64,000 nt of DNA from the NCBI RefSeq assembly GCF_028657945.1, contig NZ_CP059693.1:4588001-4652000 (forward strand). The letters are read 5' to 3'. Below, in pieces: positions 23,930-58,109 of this stretch; position 1 is the stretch's first letter; each line of letters starts with the position of its first letter. Under the pieces are notes generated by a model that searched no databases, was not told the DNA's origin, and saw nothing but the letters and a program-made list of their open reading frames with translations. Origin of the DNA: Thalassomonas haliotis (GTDB lineage Bacteria > Pseudomonadota > Gammaproteobacteria > Enterobacterales > Alteromonadaceae). Position numbers and translations under genes: made by a program.

Positions 23930-24706
23930 TTAAGCAAAGTCCTTTTCTTGCCAGCCCAGCCGTTCAAAAACCGATAGCCATTGTCTGTCAAAGCCGGTTT
24001 CAATGCTCAGCGCTTCACCGGTCACCGGATGAGCAAATTCAAGCTTTTTCGCCATCAGCATCAAACGCTTAAAACCAAAGTATTGGAGAAAAAACGGGTT
24101 TTGCTTATTATCGCCATAGTTGATATCGCCGATAATAGGATAACGCAGGTGGGCAAGGTGGCGGCGGATCTGATGACGCCTGCCGGTCGCCGGCAACAGC
24201 TTGACCAGGGAGTAGCGCACGCTGTCATATTTCCCCAAAGGCACAGCTAAACTGGCAGTGGCAAGACTCTGGTAAGAGGTTTGCGCCTCCTGCGCCGGCT
24301 TATCCGCCCGGCTGAATTTATCACCGATTTTATCCAGTTTCTCTTTTAACGGATAATCTATCATCGCCTCCCCCAACAGGTGACCGCGGGTCAGGGCATA
24401 GTAAGTTTTCCGTATGGTTTTATCGGTAAAAGCCGCTCCCATCTGCCGGGCTACGTCCCGGGTTAATGCAAAAAGCAAAACCCCCGACGTCGGCCGGTCC
24501 AGGCGGTGCAGCGGGTAAACATAACGGCCGATTTGATCCCGCACCAGTTGCAGGGCAAAAAACTGCTCATCTTTATCCATAAAGCTACGATGTACGAACA
24601 ACCCCGAAGGTTTATCCACCGCCACCAGGTATTCATCCTGATATAAAACCTTAAGTACCGGCTTTTCTGCTATTTCCTCGCCCGGGATTTGCTGGTCTTC
24701 ACTCAT
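23930..24706 (-). CDS. truC: tRNA pseudouridine(65) synthase
   Basis: RluA-family pseudouridine synthase that modifies U65 in some tRNAs. The 258-residue product has the catalytic motif HRLDRPTSGVLLFAL at about 67-81 with the active Asp, and RRHQIRRHLAHL further on. Length and partner agree with E. coli TruC. It overlaps the yqcC stop by ATGA, so the pair is translationally coupled. Confidence 0.93.
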   Translation of the reverse strand: MSEDQQIPGEEIAEKPVLKVLYQDEYLVAVDKPSGLFVHRSFMDKDEQFFALQLVRDQIGRYVYPLHRLDRPTSGVLLFALTRDVARQMGAAFTDKTIRKTYYALTRGHLLGEAMIDYPLKEKLDKIGDKFSRADKPAQEAQTSYQSLATASLAVPLGKYDSVRYSLVKLLPATGRRHQIRRHLAHLRYPIIGDINYGDNKQNPFFLQYFGFKRLMLMAKKLEFAHPVTGEALSIETGFDRQWLSVFERLGWQEKDFA

Positions 24707-25062
24707 GGCGTGCTCACAAACATGGTTTGTGCCCGCTTGCCGCTGAGTAGCTCATCAAGCTCGCCGATAATGTTGATCAGCTTCGCCACTGCCTGTCCCC
24801 GGCTTTTGAAAGCTTCTTCCGCCATGGGGCACAGCGCCATATTCGTCGGCAGGGGCAATTCCTCTTTCACCATCTGGCCAAGCTTGGCAATAAAGACAAA
24901 TTGCAGCCATTGTTCAAAGGTTAAAGTATCGCAGCAAAAAGGCTGGCGACTTTGCAGTGCCGATTCAGGCACAGGGTCGAACTGCCACAGCTGCTGTTGT
25001 TGCAATTCGGCTGCTAACAGCGACAGCAAAGTTGATGTCTCTTGGTGTATCGTTTTTTTCAT
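24703..25062 (-). CDS. yqcC: YqcC family protein (DUF446)
   Basis: Small protein of unknown function always found with truC in this group. The frame is open to 25245, but the start is set at ATG 25060-25062, giving 119 residues (the enteric protein has 109). A TATAAT-like -10 element on the minus strand at 25106-25111 lies inside the longer frame and supports the short start. The conserved core TFEQWLQFVFIAKLGQMV and an acidic N-terminus (LLAAELQQQQLW) are recognisable. Confidence 0.85.
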   Translation of the reverse strand: MKKTIHQETSTLLSLLAAELQQQQLWQFDPVPESALQSRQPFCCDTLTFEQWLQFVFIAKLGQMVKEELPLPTNMALCPMAEEAFKSRGQAVAKLINIIGELDELLSGKRAQTMFVSTP

Positions 25063-25105
25063 ATCGGGGAAGTTACCGTTTAAAAACTGCCGGGTAATAA
25101 GCGCT

Positions 25106-25111
25106 ATTATA
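25106..25111 (-). promoter_or_regulatory. -10 element for yqcC-truC
   Basis: A perfect TATAAT on the minus strand lies 44 bp upstream of the short yqcC start. The -35 region is weak (TTGCAA with a 19-bp spacer). It decides the yqcC start in favour of 25062. Confidence 0.5.
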
Positions 25112-25300
25112 CCTTTGCCTGGTGGGGACATTGCAATCATTTCTCCCCAAGCGACTCTGTTTGCCGTTTTACCCGGGGGCGGGCAAAGCCGGTTCCCTGC
25201 CCGGTGAGCTCTGCCTGCCTTGAGCAGTGCCTCCTTATTAGCCATTGTTATCTGCCCGGCTTTTAGCAGGGCATGAGTTTTAATCTCCCACCAGCCCCGC

Positions 25301-26401: not shown

Positions 26402-26701
26402 ATGGAAAATATTTATTATTTATTGGCGGCGTTTATGGTGTGCTGGTATTTTATCTACCTGAGAAAAATATCTGAGTCCGCCAGAAGACACGCCGCCCGG
26501 TATTGCGAGCAAAGCGGTTTGCAATATATTGCCATCGCCCGGAAATTCAGCAGACCAAAATTTGACAAACAGCACGGGTTATATTTTTTCAGTGTCTTTG
26601 AATTTGAGTTTAGCGGTGACGGCGAGTCGAGCAATAGCGGCGAGTTAAGCTTACGAGGATTAAAGTTAAACCAGGTGGATTTACCCGCCTATAGAATTTA
26701 A
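26402..26701 (+). CDS. DUF3301 family membrane-anchored protein
   Basis: A small protein of 99 residues. One N-terminal membrane helix (about 4-20, YYLLAAFMVCWYFIYL) is followed by a cytoplasmic Arg-rich region and a beta-rich domain ending FEFEFSGDGES. The start ATG at 26402 follows AAGGTGA by 11 bases; a GTG at 26393 is also in frame. It lies 40 bp after DUF3549 and is probably co-transcribed. A terminator follows at 26799. Function unknown. Confidence 0.8.
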   Translation: MENIYYLLAAFMVCWYFIYLRKISESARRHAARYCEQSGLQYIAIARKFSRPKFDKQHGLYFFSVFEFEFSGDGESSNSGELSLRGLKLNQVDLPAYRI

Positions 26702-26791
26702 CCCTATTAAGGGGGATTGTCGGCTAAAAGACTTATCACAGTTTCCCTGCGGATATTAAAAACCTGACAAACCTCAACTAAACAAAAAAAC

Positions 26792-26830
26792 AAAAAAACA
26801 AAAGCGGCCAATATGCCGCTTTTGTTTTTT
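26792..26830. terminator. Bidirectional terminator: DUF3301 (+) and csrB-like RNA 1 (-)
   Basis: A 10-bp stem CAAAAGCGGC/GCCGCTTTTG (26799-26808, 26815-26824) is followed by TTTTTT on the plus strand. On the minus strand it is followed by TTTTTTTGTTTTTTTG. Both directions therefore look like strong intrinsic terminators. Confidence 0.9.
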
Positions 26831-27060
26831 AGCCAACATCCTGTAGCTGGTGGCGGTCGCCATCCCGGTGACCTCTTCCCTGAAACATTAACTTCCCTGT
26901 TAACTCCTGATGCCTTCCTGGCAAACTTTAAACTAAAAGTTAACTTCCTTATTATCTTAGCCGTCCTTATGCTGATTTCCTGTCTGGCCCAACAGTCCCT
27001 GTTGAGTGATTCATCACTGAATGCTTAACGAGTTTTTCCTTAGCTCGTGTCGTCCTGACA
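26792..27060 (-). ncRNA. csrB: CsrB-family regulatory RNA, copy 1
   Basis: A predicted RNA of about 269 nt that binds and sequesters CsrA. Read on the minus strand it carries 12 GGA motifs and many small hairpins that present GGA in the loop. Examples are TGTC-AGGAC-GACA, CAACAG-GGA-CTGTTG, TGCC-AGGAA-GGCA and TTAAC-AGGGAA-GTTAA. It starts just after a TAATAT -10 box and ends at an intrinsic terminator. A GacA/UvrY-type palindrome lies 176 bp upstream. It sits beside truC-yqcC with syd nearby, as csrB does in enteric bacteria. The first 14 nt are identical to copy 2. Identity is inferred from structure and context; no covariance search was run. Confidence 0.88.
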
Positions 27061-27066
27061 TGCTTA

Positions 27067-27072
27067 ATATTA
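27067..27072 (-). promoter_or_regulatory. -10 box of csrB-like RNA 1
   Basis: TAATAT on the minus strand lies 6-7 bp upstream of the inferred RNA start near 27060. The bases that follow (TAAGC, then ATGTCAGG) align with TAATC, then ATGTCAGG at copy 2. Confidence 0.6.
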
Positions 27073-27227
27073 CCAGCTGGACTGCCCCGAGCCAGCAGCA
27101 GAAAATAAATAAATGTCACAGCTTATGGCCCGGATATAAGCAAAAAGTGAAAAAACAGTAAAAAACAAAACACTAGGACAGGCATCTGCTTTTGCGCCCT
27201 GAAAAGGCTTAACTATTCTTACACCAT

Positions 27228-27245
27228 TGTGAGAAATTTCTTACA
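27228..27245. promoter_or_regulatory. GacA/UvrY box upstream of csrB-like RNA 1
   Basis: The 18-bp palindrome TGTGAGAAATTTCTTACA matches the GacA upstream activating consensus TGTAAG-N6-CTTACA with one difference. Its centre is about 176 bp upstream of the inferred start of RNA 1. A distance near -180 is usual for GacA-controlled rsmY/rsmZ/csrB promoters. Confidence 0.82.
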
Positions 27246-27411
27246 ATCAGTTTGTGCTTCTTCACCCTGCCCTGCCTTTCTGTTGTTCATTGTTTAACCA
27301 AGACAGGAATAAAATAATTTTTCTTTTGATTCTCTCCCGGTTTTTGCCAGATTCACGCAGACACAGGTGCAAAAATTAGTTAATCTTGCGTTAATTTATT
27401 TTGGAGGTCTT

Positions 27412-28533
27412 GTGCAGCTATTAAAGTCGATTTTTTGTTTATCAGGATTTGATAATCGTCAGCGTTATGGCGCCATCTGCGGCATCAGCTATTTAAGTTT
27501 TATCCTGATGAGCGCCATGCTCACCGGTTATATGATAAGTTCAGCCATTATTTTATTTATCGCCGTTATTGTTTGTGTGCTCTCCACCAAACGCCGTTTA
27601 CAGGATGCCCAGCTCAATAAAAACTGGAGCGTCGGTCCCGGTGTAATTTTTGCCCTGACAGGTTTAGTGGTAGTCACCGTAAATCACGCAGGTGCCTACT
27701 GGCTGTTGCTTATTCCAATGGCACTTTCGGCCTTGTTATTAACGTATCCCGGCAAACCCGAAAAAGATTACCAGTTAGGTTATAACGGCCCCGTTGATTT
27801 ACATGGCTTTGGCCAAAGTCATGTCCGTACCAGCCATGCCTCCGGCCGGATAGAGCCAACGCTGGCTCCTTCAGCGGACGCAGAGCAACCCCTTGCCATT
27901 GACAGCCCCGAGCAGGCATTTAGCGCTTCCACAGAACAAACTCATGCCAGCGGCGGGGGCTTTTCCAGCGGTTCAGCACAGCAAGACCCCGGTGAACAAA
28001 TTCGCCTGTTGCTGCTGAATAAGAAAAATGCCCTTTACGCCGGTGGCGTTATACTCGCTTTTATCATCACAGGCATAGTACTTTCCCTGCTATTTTCCGC
28101 TAGCGACAACACACAAGCCATGCCGGACAATACAGCACCGGCACAGCGGCAAAGCCCACAGGATGAAAAACTGCATAAAATAGATCTTCCCGATAACTTT
28201 TCTTTACTGCTCAACCAATACCAGGGAGTGATCATTAGCTGGCAATCGGATAAAAGCGAACAAACGCAAATCTGGTCTTTAAAAACCGCCCGGGGAGATA
28301 ACAGCTGCGAGAAAATTACCTTTAATAACGGTGAATCTTTTCGCACATATAGTGTTACCACTGAGATGGGGGAGCACTATTTCGCCAGCTTCTCGCCATT
28401 AGACACTAAAGGCCTGCTGCAGGCGATAGCATTTCGCGGCAATTTCCGCCTGTGCGGTTATAAGTTTTCATTGAAAGGCAGCCAGGCGGCATTAGGGAAA
28501 AACAATCATTACGCCGAATTTATCGACTATTAG
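27412..28533 (+). CDS. DUF805-like membrane protein with C-terminal extracytoplasmic domain
   Basis: The frame opens at GTG 27367; the start chosen is GTG 27412, 4 bases after GGAGG, giving 373 residues. The N-terminal part has about four membrane helices (20-57 and 75-112), and SGFDNRQRYGAIC plus STKRRLQDA...LLTYPGKPEKDYQLGYNGP recall a diverged DUF805 domain. A Ser/Pro/Gln-rich linker (125-195) is followed by one membrane helix (205-225) and a soluble C-terminal domain of about 110 residues with two cysteines. It lies between the two csrB-like RNAs on the opposite strand. No function is assigned. Confidence 0.7.
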   Translation: MQLLKSIFCLSGFDNRQRYGAICGISYLSFILMSAMLTGYMISSAIILFIAVIVCVLSTKRRLQDAQLNKNWSVGPGVIFALTGLVVVTVNHAGAYWLLLIPMALSALLLTYPGKPEKDYQLGYNGPVDLHGFGQSHVRTSHASGRIEPTLAPSADAEQPLAIDSPEQAFSASTEQTHASGGGFSSGSAQQDPGEQIRLLLLNKKNALYAGGVILAFIITGIVLSLLFSASDNTQAMPDNTAPAQRQSPQDEKLHKIDLPDNFSLLLNQYQGVIISWQSDKSEQTQIWSLKTARGDNSCEKITFNNGESFRTYSVTTEMGEHYFASFSPLDTKGLLQAIAFRGNFRLCGYKFSLKGSQAALGKNNHYAEFIDY

Positions 28534-28572
28534 CTCAGCCATAGTCCAGAGTAGCTCAGCCATAGTCCAGAA
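28531..28572 (+). repeat. Tandem 21-bp repeat at the stop codon
   Basis: TAGCTCAGCCATAGTCCAG plus AG/AA occurs twice in a row (28531-28551, 28552-28572), differing only in the last base. The first unit begins with the TAG stop codon of the preceding gene. It looks like a recent slippage duplication. Confidence 0.8.
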
Positions 28573-28628
28573 GCTTGCCAGGCCTGTAAAAGCTCAGGCA
28601 TAAAGGCGCAGCATAAACTTTCCGGCAT

Positions 28629-28657
28629 AAAAAAATGCGGCTCATAGAGCCGCATTT
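28629..28657 (-). terminator. Terminator of csrB-like RNA 2
   Basis: An 11-bp stem AAATGCGGCTC/GAGCCGCATTT (28633-28643, 28647-28657) has a 3-nt loop. On the minus strand the stem runs straight into a run of seven T. It may also stop plus-strand transcripts of the gene ending at 28533. Confidence 0.9.
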
Positions 28658-28963
28658 ATTTAACTAGCTTAGTGCTTCCTGCACATATTTAGTGTTCCCA
28701 CACTTTATATCCCTAAAATATCTATCCCTAGTATATTTTGATGAATCCTTTCATCCTCCTTAAGCCGTCCCGGGCAATATATCTTCCTGATATATTCACA
28801 TTACTGTGTGTTCCCTGTGCTGTCCATTTGCATCATCCTGATGTTAACCATCCTTGATCAACTCACTTCCCTGTTATATCTTCCTTTTGTGAATATCCCA
28901 TCCACAAGACATCATCCTTAATGCCTCCCTTAACAGAGTATCCTTCTCTGTGTCGTCCTGACA
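28629..28963 (-). ncRNA. CsrB-family regulatory RNA, copy 2
   Basis: A predicted CsrA-sequestering RNA of about 335 nt. The minus strand holds about 21 GGA motifs, close to the number in E. coli CsrB. Many are in hairpin loops: TGTC-AGGAC-GACA, ACAGAG-AAGGATA-CTCTGT, CATCA-GGA-TGATG, and ATATATC-AGGA-AGATATAT. It begins with the same 14 nt as copy 1 and ends in a strong terminator. The -10 box is TATTAT (28970-28975), and a GacA-type box lies 177 bp upstream. Apart from the 5' end, sequence identity with copy 1 is low, as is usual for paralogous Csr RNAs. Assigned from structure and context. Confidence 0.88.
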
Positions 28964-28969
28964 TGATTA

Positions 28970-28975
28970 ATAATA
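28970..28975 (-). promoter_or_regulatory. -10 box of csrB-like RNA 2
   Basis: TATTAT on the minus strand has the same spacing to the conserved ATGTCAGGACGACAC start as at copy 1. The inferred start is 28963-28964. Confidence 0.6.
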
Positions 28976-29131
28976 CGTGATTTTCACAATTAACTTAGTA
29001 GGGCAAAAAATATAATAATCTGCAACTTTATTGCAACAAAAGCCAGTCAGGATTTACTCAATATTTTTCAATATGTTACAAAATAATACAGAGAATAATG
29101 TGACATCATTAACCAAGATATCTTACGCTTA

Positions 29132-29149
29132 TGTAGGAAATGTCGCACA
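29132..29149. promoter_or_regulatory. Degenerate GacA/UvrY box upstream of csrB-like RNA 2
   Basis: TGTAGGAAATGTCGCACA keeps the outer TGT...ACA and the G-N6-C core of the GacA consensus (TGTnnG-N6-CnnACA). Its centre is 177 bp upstream of the RNA 2 start, practically the same distance as at copy 1. It is a weaker match than the copy 1 box. The rest of the gap to 29380 shows nothing further. Confidence 0.65.
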
Positions 29150-29380
29150 GCAAGAGGTAAAATTAAGGCAAAGCTGCCCGCAGGCCAATACCGGCAAATA
29201 TTTTCATTTAATCCATTAAGGCAGAAAATAATTAAACAGGCAGTCAAAAAGCAACAATCAGAGCGCTTTCAGAACCTGAATTTTGGATTATAGACGGTCG
29301 AAAAGCAGAGATAAAAGCAAGTCGCGACAACCTGCTTTAAACAAGTGAACTTTAGTAGTAGTTTGGCATGTCAGGTGAAC

Positions 29381-30037
29381 TTAACCTTGGCTGTTTTTCT
29401 GTTCCCGGTAATGAACCATCAAGGCGCCGCTAACATTACCGACATTGATTTCACGAATAAACTGATAATCAACATCTTTGAAAAATTCCCGGTATTTTTC
29501 CGAGGTGGCATAAACGGCGACTCCTTCACTGTCCGGATGTTCTTCCAGCACAGTCGACACCGCCGCCATAAGATAATGGCCAAAACCATAATGCTGGTGT
29601 AAAGGGTGGATGGCAATAAAAGACAACATGTGAAATTTTTTCAACGGCACCGCAGATAAAATGACCTCTTCCTTTTCGATCATTTGTTTGGTGCTAAAAT
29701 AACCGGCGCTTAACAGCATTTTCAAGCGCCAGTGCCAGAAGCGCTCGGAACCAAAACCGTCATCCGGACCGTTTAAGCAGGCAACCCCTACCATGGCTTC
29801 ACCAAGATACAGGCCAACCATGGGCTGCCTTGCATGCCAAAATGCCCCCAGCTCTTCCCGGATAGAAGCACGCAACCTTTGTTCATAGTCTTCCTTTTCA
29901 CCATTAAAGATCTCTAAAAATACCGGATCATCGTGATATGCCTGGTATAATAAAGATGCGGCCAATTTAAGGTCTTCAGCAGCAAGATATGTTGCTCTTA
30001 CTTTTGCCTTTGTCGGCGCAGTTGCCACATTTGTCAT
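29381..30037 (-). CDS. GNAT family N-acetyltransferase
   Basis: The 218-residue product has an acetyl-CoA binding region near 145-165 (FIAIHPLHQHYGFGHYLMAAV), where the usual RxxGxG/A motif appears as HQHYGFGHY. The typical C-terminal beta strands follow (GVAVYATSEKYREFFKDVDYQ). The start has a strong site GGGGGAG 4 bases upstream. It is a single gene with no operon partner. The acceptor substrate cannot be told; the missing Arg of the pyrophosphate loop is unusual. Confidence 0.8.
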   Translation of the reverse strand: MTNVATAPTKAKVRATYLAAEDLKLAASLLYQAYHDDPVFLEIFNGEKEDYEQRLRASIREELGAFWHARQPMVGLYLGEAMVGVACLNGPDDGFGSERFWHWRLKMLLSAGYFSTKQMIEKEEVILSAVPLKKFHMLSFIAIHPLHQHYGFGHYLMAAVSTVLEEHPDSEGVAVYATSEKYREFFKDVDYQFIREINVGNVSGALMVHYREQKNSQG

Positions 30038-31639: not shown

Positions 31640-32245
31640 TTATGCCTGAATATGCGGGGTTAGGCCGGCGATAAATTCCGCCATCGAATCCGCCAGTTTT
31701 TTATGAGGCTCACGGCCGACTCGTTCCACCCAAATGGCGCCGGTTTCATTATCTAATGACAAAATAAGATCTTCTTCATCTGTGATGGCAAAAAAAATGC
31801 TGATGCGCTGTTTTAACCTTCGTTTCATTAAAACATGGCCGATGATATTTTCCTGTAAACGCTCAAAGTCAGCTTCATTCCATGAAAACAACAGCGACAG
31901 CTTGCCTTCTGAACATACGGCATCAAGGGGGTCCGAATGAAAGGCGGTAAAATAACTTTTTATATCCGGGTGCAGCTCCATCTCAAGTGCGGACTCTATA
32001 TTGTTAAAACATAAATCCCCGTCAGCCGGCACCGGTTGCCAGAGCATTTGCGGCCCCTGCCCGGTGCTGTTGTCTTGTCCGGTATTTTCTTGAGCAGTAA
32101 AAATCCCCTGCTGGCAAGCCGACGGCCAGTCTTCGTCCAGCTCAGCCACGGGCAAGTGGCCATGGGCATGCTGGTAATTTTCAATATAACATCTGGCAAA
32201 ATGCCAAAGATTGTCGGTTAAGTCGTTATTTGTTGATTTCATCAA
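31640..32245 (-). CDS. syd: SecY-interacting protein Syd
   Basis: Soluble protein that binds SecY at the inner membrane and is thought to check translocon integrity. The 201-residue product is slightly longer than E. coli Syd (181) because of a Gln/Thr-rich insert near residues 50-65. Shared segments are LSLLFSWNEADFERLQENIIGHVLMKRRLK and the C-terminal ADSMAEFIAGLTPHI. It is divergent from queF, as in E. coli, where csrB and yqcC are also neighbours. Confidence 0.92.
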   Translation of the reverse strand: MMKSTNNDLTDNLWHFARCYIENYQHAHGHLPVAELDEDWPSACQQGIFTAQENTGQDNSTGQGPQMLWQPVPADGDLCFNNIESALEMELHPDIKSYFTAFHSDPLDAVCSEGKLSLLFSWNEADFERLQENIIGHVLMKRRLKQRISIFFAITDEEDLILSLDNETGAIWVERVGREPHKKLADSMAEFIAGLTPHIQA

Positions 32246-56963: not shown

Positions 56964-57040
56964 GGCTACATAGCTCAGCTGGTTAGAGCACATCACTCAT
57001 AATGATGGGGTCCCAGGTTCAAATCCCGGTGTAGCCACCA
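56964..57040 (+). tRNA. tRNA-Met (CAT), elongator, copy 1
   Basis: 77 nt with encoded CCA. The acceptor GGCTACA pairs with TGTAGCC, and the anticodon loop reads CTCATAA. It resembles enteric elongator metT, not the initiator. Confidence 0.97.
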
Positions 57041-57068
57041 TTCTTTTCTCAGTAAAAACATATAGTAC

Positions 57069-57153
<85 letters not shown>

Positions 57154-57194
57154 TTGCTATATGGCAACTGATGTTGCGAACTGAATTACATTGT

Positions 57195-57269
57195 TGGGGT
57201 ATAGCCAAGCGGTAAGGCAGCGGGTTTTGATCCCGTCATTCCAAGGTTCAAATCCTTGTACCCCAGCCA
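57195..57269 (+). tRNA. tRNA-Gln (TTG), copy 1
   Basis: 75 nt, acceptor TGGGGTA/TACCCCA, anticodon TTG in TTTTGAT, T-arm GGTTCAAATCC, encoded CCA after the discriminator G. Confidence 0.97.
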
Positions 57270-57348
57270 CTTTCTTCTTTTAACAGAAGACAGAAAGAAC
57301 AATGTAATAACTACCAGATTGTTTCATTTTTATGAAATCAATCAAAAT

Positions 57349-57433
<85 letters not shown>

Positions 57434-57465
57434 TTTATCAAGTTGGTTGATAAATGAAATGCTGT

Positions 57466-57540
57466 TGGGGTATAGCCAAGCGGTAAGGCAGCGGGTTTTG
57501 ATCCCGTCATTCCAAGGTTCAAATCCTTGTACCCCAGCCA
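57466..57540 (+). tRNA. tRNA-Gln (TTG), copy 2
   Basis: 75 nt, identical to copy 1. It is followed 33 bp later by a terminator-like hairpin. Confidence 0.97.
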
Positions 57541-57573
57541 CTTTCTCAAACATATTTGATATGCATGAGAATG

Positions 57574-57600
57574 AATCGACTGAATCGGTCGATTTTTTTT
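57574..57600 (+). terminator. Internal terminator in the tRNA cluster
   Basis: A 7-bp stem AATCGAC/GTCGATT (57574-57580, 57588-57594) is followed by TTTTTT. It divides the cluster into Met-Leu-Gln-Leu-Gln and Met-Leu-Gln-Gln. No convincing promoter is seen before the second part, so partial read-through is likely. Confidence 0.75.
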
Positions 57601-57639
57601 GTCCAAATCCTTGATGTTTTTTATCAGGGTACTTGTTAA

Positions 57640-57716
57640 GGCTACATAGCTCAGCTGGTTAGAGCACATCACTCATAATGATGGGGTCCCAGGTTCAAAT
57701 CCCGGTGTAGCCACCA
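57640..57716 (+). tRNA. tRNA-Met (CAT), elongator, copy 2
   Basis: 77 nt, identical to copy 1 as far as read, with encoded CCA. Confidence 0.97.
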
Positions 57717-57751
57717 TTCTTCTTAGCATTTAATGTGTAAGTTGTAGAAAT

Positions 57752-57836
<85 letters not shown>

Positions 57837-57885
57837 TTTCAATCACGGCCAATGACATTAAGCAAGAAAACAAGTTTTACATTAT

Positions 57886-57960
57886 TGGGGTATAGCCAAG
57901 CGGTAAGGCAGCGGGTTTTGATCCCGTCATTCCAAGGTTCAAATCCTTGTACCCCAGCCA
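57886..57960 (+). tRNA. tRNA-Gln (TTG), copy 3
   Basis: 75 nt, identical to the other Gln copies. Confidence 0.97.
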
Positions 57961-58034
57961 CTTTTCTGCAGGCTCCTATTAGCAGCCCTTGTTAAGAAAA
58001 GTGTCATGTAAAGACAAACGAAGAATACCACGAT

Positions 58035-58109
58035 TGGGGTATAGCCAAGCGGTAAGGCAGCGGGTTTTGATCCCGTCATTCCAAGGTTCAAATCCTTGTA
58101 CCCCAGCCA
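58035..58109 (+). tRNA. tRNA-Gln (TTG), copy 4
   Basis: 75 nt, identical to the other Gln copies. It is the last gene of the cluster. Confidence 0.97.

What the first reader, a model, noticed from the sequence alone, without database searches (positions are those of the whole stretch)
28629..28963. Second CsrB-type RNA in the same locus
A second minus-strand element of about 335 nt has about 21 GGA motifs, GGA-loop hairpins and its own terminator. Its first 14 nt are identical to copy 1, while the rest is strongly diverged. Two csr RNA genes within 2 kb, in the same orientation and separated by one opposed protein gene, look like an old tandem duplication. Redundant Csr RNAs are known in Vibrio and Pseudomonas, but this arrangement is worth recording.
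Basis: partly seen in the sequence, partly recalled or inferred. Interest (0 to 1): 0.72.

Follow-up and report, generated by a model that had tools for sequence, protein, structure and literature searches.

The report
Tandem CsrB-type regulatory RNA, second copy
This stretch looks like the gene of a small RNA with 21 copies of the motif that soaks up the regulatory protein CsrA; it is one of a side-by-side pair that a number of related marine bacteria also carry, a known kind of regulator in an arrangement already reported in Shewanella.

Summary
Window 28629-28963 (minus strand) is a 335-nt intergenic element with 21 GGA motifs (0 of 2000 dinucleotide shuffles reach 21), a -10-like hexamer, its own terminator, and an imperfect UvrY/GacA-type box 177 nt upstream. 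Of nine segments of the locus compared with three congeners it is the best conserved (96-98%). Its helices covary, and it matches Rfam CsrB at E 3.4e-8, below the gathering score. The truC-yqcC-[csr]-syd-queF-ppnN neighbourhood is that of E. coli csrB, so this is very probably a csrB orthologue acting as a CsrA sponge.

"Old duplication" is right in age: copy-1 and copy-2 lineages stand on either side of the same unnamed gene in 12 of 44 related loci. Tandem origin is inferred. Three points change the reading: (1) copy 2 is the conservative, probably ancestral-like member, copy 1 the diverged one; (2) the closest relative of copy 2 found in this genome is a dispersed csr RNA 220 kb away, not copy 1; (3) the arrangement has a published precedent, csrB1/csrB2 of Shewanella, adjacent or separated by one gene. 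No transcript evidence exists here. New member of a known kind; modest interest.

The parts
28629..28963 (-). copy 2 csr RNA (CsrB-type), 335 nt, 21 GGA; start estimated from the -10-like hexamer
   Evidence: GGA count and shuffles; RF00018 37.7 bits, E 3.4e-8, below gathering 71; profile from 24 copy-2-type RNAs of other genera E 6.7e-42; covariation
28629..28657 (-). intrinsic terminator of copy 2
   Evidence: 2 of 13 stem pairs show changes on both sides (helix 8)
28659..28682 (-). last GGA hairpin and the conserved AAGCTAG linker before the terminator
   Evidence: AAGCTAG invariant in 17 of 17 aligned RNAs; coordinates
28970..28975 (-). -10-like hexamer TATTAT of copy 2; no matching -35 reported
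   Evidence: similar hexamers open most of the RNAs listed; the promoter scan did not report it
29132..29149 (-). UvrY/GacA-type 18-bp box of copy 2 (TGTGCG-N6-CCTACA), 10 of 12, centre -177
27367..28533 (+). opposed protein gene between the copies, 388 aa, no family; start codon not tested
   Evidence: no Pfam family at E 0.001; no NCBIfam match above cut-off; tblastn match in 32 of 44 related loci
26793..27061 (-). copy 1 csr RNA, about 269 nt, 12 GGA
   Evidence: CsrC RF00084 21.9 bits, E 7e-4, below gathering
26793..26830 (-). terminator of copy 1
27228..27245 (-). UvrY/GacA-type box of copy 1 (TGTAAG-N6-CTCACA), 12 of 12 of the pattern used, centre -176
31640..32245 (-). syd, marker of the E. 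coli csrB neighbourhood
   Evidence: PF07348 E 6e-56; E. coli order
24703..25245 (-). yqcC homologue, marker of the E. coli csrB neighbourhood
   Evidence: PF04287 E 1e-31; E. coli order

Best explanation
Copy 2 is a CsrB-type small RNA, the positional orthologue of E. coli csrB. It is transcribed on the minus strand from a promoter activated by phosphorylated UvrY bound about 177 nt upstream, ends at an intrinsic terminator, and presents many GGA motifs in hairpin loops and single strands that bind several CsrA dimers, keeping CsrA off its mRNA targets. It and copy 1 descend from an old duplication in the lineage leading to Colwelliaceae, after which copy 1 diverged and shortened, and the copy-2 lineage gave rise to further dispersed copies. 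Shown here: sequence, structure conservation, synteny, lineages and box position. Inferred from known Csr systems: transcription, UvrY control, CsrA binding and sequestration, and that the duplication was tandem.
For: GGA excess and loop placement. RF00018 E 3.4e-8 in the 2801-nt region and 37.7 bits, E 1.8e-8, genome-wide. A profile of 24 copy-2-type RNAs of other genera finds window 28629-28975 at E 6.7e-42. Covariation on 17 RNAs: 19 of 41 pairs with a change on both sides; 0 of 500 shuffles reach any of the five measures. Of nine segments compared with three congeners, copy 2 is the best conserved: 95.9-97.6%, against 75-81% for the opposed gene, 85-90% for the start of the GNAT-like gene and 31-39% for the gap after its terminator. 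GGA columns are better kept than others, 0.74 against 0.57, in 13 more distant rows. E. coli MG1655 order truC-yqcC-csrB-syd-queF-ppnN matches the window. UvrY-type box scoring at least 10 of 12 at -175 to -179 in 44 of 52 RNAs examined: 27 of 27 copy-2 type, 7 of 7 dispersed, 10 of 18 copy-1 type. The genome has a csrA gene and a uvrY homologue next to uvrC. Copy-1 and copy-2 types fall into separate lineages.
Against: No Rfam family reaches its gathering score at either copy; but 0 of 116 genomes of the family had a CsrB hit above it. No transcript or CsrA-binding data. The window's copy-2 box is imperfect (10 of 12 of a pattern looser than the published one; 4.8% of 2080 mononucleotide-shuffled upstream regions reach 10 somewhere), and the promoter scan found nothing beyond chance. 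The uvrY homologue in this assembly is frame-broken before its DNA-binding end, so UvrY control in this very strain is uncertain unless the break is an assembly error. 16 of 44 related loci show no csr RNA in the held stretch.
Confidence: 0.92

Rival explanations
1. Copy 2 did not arise by tandem duplication at this locus. A csr unit (box, promoter, RNA, terminator) relocated into the syd locus from elsewhere, as the dispersed copies show such units can move.
For: Copy 2 is closer to dispersed copies D1 and D2 than to copy 1 (grouped at 95/90). Csr copies sit at other places in relatives. Vibrio copies are described as duplicated and relocated (PMC6262261, passages).
Against: 23 of 44 related loci carry a csr RNA after the opposed gene, whereas the D1/D2 group of the tree holds Thalassomonas rows only (the DNA search for them covered 4 Thalassomonas-genus genomes), so D from copy 2 is the simpler direction. 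The single csr RNA of Bowmanella at this locus matches the copy-2 profile weakly (E 6e-4 and 9e-4 for two loci, 0.05 for a third, a fourth not listed) and the copy-1 profile not at all at E 1.
Confidence: 0.2
2. The pair is older than Colwelliaceae and shared with Shewanella and Ferrimonas. The ancestor had two adjacent csr genes, and the opposed gene was inserted between them later.
For: Ferrimonas L101 and L105 carry two GGA-rich elements in a row between the DUF3301 and GNAT-like genes, without the opposed gene. Shewanella csrB1 and csrB2 share one locus (PMC3171408, passages).
Against: Bowmanella (4 loci) and Vibrio (3 loci) have a single element there (two short peaks overlapping syd in L120 and L121 were dropped). 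Ferrimonas elements match neither the copy-1 nor the copy-2 profile at E 1, so descent cannot be traced and independent duplication is possible. The Shewanella locus itself was not fetched.
Confidence: 0.3
3. GGA-rich but untranscribed DNA, or part of a coding gene.
For: No transcript evidence is available with these tools.
Against: Covariation with 0 of 500 shuffles reaching any measure; conserved -10-like hexamer, box and terminator; the longest stop-free stretch inside the element is 58 codons.
Confidence: 0.02

Closest known systems
E. coli CsrB (RF00018)
   Same: Same gene neighbourhood and orientation, GGA-loop hairpins, terminator, far-upstream UvrY box; full-length match to the model.
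   Different: Bit score 37.7, below the gathering score of 71; further genes (DUF3549, DUF3301, the opposed gene, a GNAT-like gene, DUF3192) lie between yqcC and syd; a second copy lies beside it.
Shewanella csrB1/csrB2 (PMC3171408, passages; predicted by Kulkarni et al. 2006, not held)
   Same: Two csr RNA genes in one locus, adjacent in S. putrefaciens CN-32, separated by one gene in S. oneidensis MR-1; a UvrY box upstream of each; in S. oneidensis both expressed and UvrY-dependent.
   Different: The separating gene there is a transposase; here it is a gene without a family that recurs in relatives. Whether the pairs share one origin is unresolved.
Vibrio tasmaniensis csrB1-csrB4 (PMC6262261) and Pseudoalteromonas fuliginea Pf1-Pf3 (PMC11882849), passages of both
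   Same: Several csr RNAs per genome; in Vibrio by duplication, with partly separate regulation.
   Different: The Vibrio copies fall into separate synteny groups, and Pf2 and Pf3 into different intergenic regions; no pair in one locus was seen in the passages read.
E. coli CsrC (RF00084)
   Same: Best csr match of copy 1 in Rfam (21.9 bits, E 7e-4).
   Different: Below the gathering score of 61; copy 1 lies in the csrB locus, so I take the CsrC match as composition and terminator.

Membership tests
CsrB/RsmB RNA family (Rfam RF00018) | score at or above the curated gathering score (71 bits) | tested here: not met
   37.7 bits for copy 2; copy 1 has no RF00018 row. 0 of 116 family genomes pass (stricter filters), while E. 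coli does.
CsrB-type CsrA-sequestering sRNAs (functional class) | many GGA motifs, largely unpaired or in hairpin loops | tested here: met
   21 GGA, 11 wholly in hairpin loops, 0 of 2000 shuffles as many
CsrB-type CsrA-sequestering sRNAs (functional class) | independent intergenic transcription unit with terminator | tested here: inconclusive
   at sequence level a -10-like hexamer, a terminator and no long open frame; transcription not tested
CsrB-type CsrA-sequestering sRNAs (functional class) | far-upstream 18-bp UvrY/GacA box (TGTAAGN6CTTACA) | tested here: met
   imperfect, 10 of 12 of TGTRAGN6CTYACA, at -177; 12 of 12 for copy 1. Published consensus seen in PMC4682653 (passages)
CsrB-type CsrA-sequestering sRNAs (functional class) | conserved secondary structure | tested here: met
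   19 of 41 pairs with changes on both sides; 0 of 500 shuffles
CsrB-type CsrA-sequestering sRNAs (functional class) | binds and antagonises CsrA | not testable with these tools
   needs gel shift or co-precipitation; csrA is present
csrB orthologue | truC-yqcC-csrB-syd-queF-ppnN neighbourhood | tested here: met

The most novel reading that the evidence does not exclude
The two lineages have divided labour. In Thalassomonas the structurally conserved, GGA-rich copy 2 is drifting from UvrY control (box 10 of 12 in 3 of 4 species, 11 in the fourth), while the small, fast-evolving copy 1 keeps a full box (12 of 12 in 4 of 4). In five Cognaticolwellia/Colwellia loci (L073, L079, L081, L083, L085) the reverse holds: copy 1 scores 8-9 and copy 2 11-12. 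If so, the pair gives a steady sponge plus a signal-driven one, with roles swapped between genera.
Probability: 0.2. Interest if true: 0.5.

Novelty: new member of a known kind. Interest (0 to 1): 0.33.

Why it matters
It anchors RNAs that Rfam's curated cut-off missed in all 116 genomes searched: the csrB locus of Colwelliaceae carries an old pair of csr RNAs. Because both lineages recur side by side in several genera, with different rates of change and different wear of their UvrY boxes, the pair is a natural series for asking why bacteria keep several CsrA sponges.

Tried and rejected
Rfam at gathering score gave only tRNAs; the permissive search was needed. Its sraL, L20_leader and other weak rows at the terminators were taken as chance hairpin matches. 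The third own-genome RF00018 row (353132-353387, E 0.62) was not followed and is taken as chance; so was a weak row in a congener (G061:C14, 22.7 bits). The wide RF00018 search used stricter filters and missed copy 2 of this very genome, so its counts are lower bounds. The promoter scan found no more sigma-70-like sites than shuffles (5 against 5.1) and is not used as support. A GGA peak on the plus strand of L093 is a tandem repeat by its sequence, not a csr RNA.

Rows dropped: 50 of the extracted candidates seeded the first profile, short ones and two peaks overlapping syd in L120 and L121 left out. 67 RNAs were extracted; 7 (3 Vibrio, 4 Ferrimonas) were dropped as too divergent, leaving 60 in the tree. 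The box scan used 52 RNAs (18 copy-1, 27 copy-2, 7 dispersed) and left out L087_C2, L095_C1, L143, L151, L153 and the outgroups; its controls were mononucleotide shuffles. The covariation alignment used 17 RNAs (4 Thalassomonas copy 2, 7 dispersed, 6 other copy 2), chosen for alignability; its structure came from the same alignment, which favours it over the slid controls. That copy-1 rows form one clade was tested with 19 rows (p-AU 0.245, not rejected), but only 18 sit together (83/85, below the programme's starred level); L095, which lacks the opposed gene, falls among copy-2 types. Census: 44 of the 79 named loci, those nearest by the DUF3549 protein plus L131. No structure prediction of the opposed gene was made, and the Shewanella locus was not fetched.

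Full report
What is there. On the minus strand, 28963-28629 is a 335-nt intergenic element with 21 GGA motifs; 2000 dinucleotide shuffles average 12.3 and none reaches 21. It begins 7 nt past a -10-like hexamer (28975-28970), opens with a TGTC-AGGAC-GACA hairpin, and ends in a terminator with a U-tract at 28657-28629. Copy 1 (27061-26793) shares 16 nt at its start and little else (48.7% aligned identity against 41-46% for 8 shuffled controls). Between them, on the plus strand, is a 388-aa open frame (27367-28533) without a Pfam match at E 0.001 and without an NCBIfam match above cut-off.

What it is. Rfam at gathering scores reports only tRNAs in the window. The permissive search of 26600-29400 gives CsrB for copy 2 (37.7 bits, E 3.4e-8, full model length) and CsrC weakly for copy 1 (21.9 bits, E 7e-4); both are below gathering. 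That shortfall is general: 35 of 116 family genomes have a CsrB match at E 0.001 or better and 0 of 116 pass the gathering score, while E. coli does (stricter filters, which also missed copy 2 of this genome). The window lies in the E. coli csrB neighbourhood. MG1655 has truC, yqcC, csrB and syd on one strand, then queF and ppnN on the other. The window has truC(-), yqcC(-), DUF3549(+), DUF3301(+), copy 1(-), the opposed gene(+), copy 2(-), a GNAT-like gene(-, Pfam hit below its cut-off), DUF3192(-), syd(-), queF(+), a GGDEF-like gene(+, label recalled from the motif in the translation), ppnN(+).

Selection on the RNA. In nine segments compared with three congeners, copy 2 is 95.9-97.6% identical, the start of the GNAT-like gene 85-90%, the opposed gene 75-81%, copy 1 85-90%, and the gap after copy 2's terminator 31-39%. 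On 17 related RNAs, 19 of 41 predicted pairs show a change on both sides, 95.2% of cells pair, and 0 of 500 shuffles reach any of the five measures; the structure was derived from the same alignment, so the slid controls flatter it. In 13 more distant rows GGA columns keep 0.74 identity against 0.57 for the rest.

Regulation. An 18-bp box of the UvrY type (published TGTAAGN6CTTACA, PMC4682653, passages) was sought with the looser TGTRAGN6CTYACA. 44 of 52 RNAs score at least 10 of 12, all 44 with the centre at -175 to -179: 27 of 27 copy-2 type, 7 of 7 dispersed, 10 of 18 copy-1 type. Four more copy-1 rows score 8-9 near that place, and four have nothing there. In the window copy 1 scores 12 and copy 2 only 10. 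Mononucleotide-shuffled upstream regions reach 10 in 4.8% of 2080 trials, so the constant position carries the weight. One csrA gene was found. The uvrY homologue beside uvrC is frame-broken in a G run before its DNA-binding end, whereas three congeners have longer open frames (224-230 against 187 codons). Whether this is real or an assembly error is unknown.

Copies and history. Three csr RNAs were found in this genome: copies 1 and 2 and one at 4396 kb (65.4 bits). Each of three congeners shows one more. Copy 2 aligns at 76.2% with the dispersed copy and at 48.7% with copy 1, and in the 60-RNA tree it groups with the 7 dispersed Thalassomonas RNAs at 95/90. Copy-1 rows group together in 18 of 19 cases (83/85). 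In 44 of the 79 named loci (L054-L096, L131): 12 have csr RNAs on both sides of the opposed gene; 11 only after it (L064 and L096 apparently two); 1 near the GNAT-like gene with no opposed gene found (L092); 1 only before it (L082); 3 next to DUF3301 with no opposed gene found (L056, L088, L095); 16 none in the held stretch, of which L068, L074 and L084 hold under 4.5 kb downstream. The opposed gene is found in 32 of these 44 loci and in 0 of 26 outgroup loci (L097-L121, L132). Of those 26, 9 show a csr element at this place: Bowmanella and Vibrio loci one each, two Ferrimonas loci two in a row. A profile of 24 copy-2 types without Thalassomonas finds window copy 2 at E 6.7e-42. The corresponding copy-1 profile of 14 rows finds copy 1 at only E 6e-7, barely better than the copy-2 profile does (23.5 against 20.4 bits). 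Bowmanella loci match the copy-2 profile weakly (E 6e-4, 9e-4, 0.05; one of four not listed) and the copy-1 profile not at E 1. So copy 2 is probably the ancestral-like and copy 1 the derived member; tandem origin is plausible but not shown.

Literature. Shewanella csrB1 and csrB2 share one locus, adjacent in S. putrefaciens CN-32 and separated by a transposase gene in S. oneidensis; in the latter both are transcribed and UvrY-dependent, csrB2 about tenfold higher (PMC3171408, passages). Vibrio tasmaniensis has four csrB genes, one by recent duplication (PMC6262261, passages), and Pseudoalteromonas fuliginea three Csr RNAs (PMC11882849, passages; PMC9927453, passages). Passages of PMC7652899 and PMC6550530 gave background. 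Kulkarni et al. 2006 was not held. Searches for CsrB with Colwellia (2 papers), sRNA with Thalassomonas (4 papers) and CsrB with Alteromonadales, Thalassotalea, Colwelliaceae or Ferrimonas (10 of 138 papers listed, none of the ten holding csrB) showed no paper on these RNAs in the listings; the rest of the 138 were not seen.

Verdict. Very probably a CsrB-type RNA, a CsrA sponge and a csrB orthologue, in an old pair of a kind already reported. Mechanism: UvrY-activated transcription, multivalent CsrA binding, release of CsrA targets; every functional step is inferred from known Csr systems.

Noticed in passing
L186:740-1400 (genome 2939988-2940515 and on): The uvrY homologue upstream of uvrC is frame-broken in a run of G, leaving its DNA-binding end in another frame; three congeners have longer open frames. 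Assembly error or real loss is open.
   Followed up: partly
L001:1509-1832 (genome 4395981-4396314, +): A third, dispersed csr RNA with a full UvrY-type box (12 of 12 of the pattern used); three congeners have yet another (L170, L171, L135).
   Followed up: yes
window 28659-28682 (-): An AAGCTAG heptamer between the last GGA hairpin and the terminator is invariant in 17 of 17 aligned copy-2 type and dispersed RNAs; it may be a processing or decay site.
   Followed up: no
window 27367-28533 (+): A 388-aa protein without a family, found in 32 of 44 related loci and in 0 of 26 outgroup loci.
   Followed up: partly
L101 and L105, 1.6-2.6 kb after the start of DUF3549: Ferrimonas has two GGA-rich elements in a row at the same locus, without the opposed gene.
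   Followed up: partly
L064:12538-13420: A Colwellia locus with two csr RNAs directly in a row after the opposed gene, both among copy-2 types in the tree.
   Followed up: partly
L095 and L088, just after DUF3301: Pseudocolwellia loci lack the opposed gene and have a csr RNA there; that of L095 groups with copy-2 types although it sits in copy 1's place, as a deletion between the copies would leave.
   Followed up: partly
window 56964-58106 (+): An array of nine tRNA genes of repeated types.
   Followed up: no
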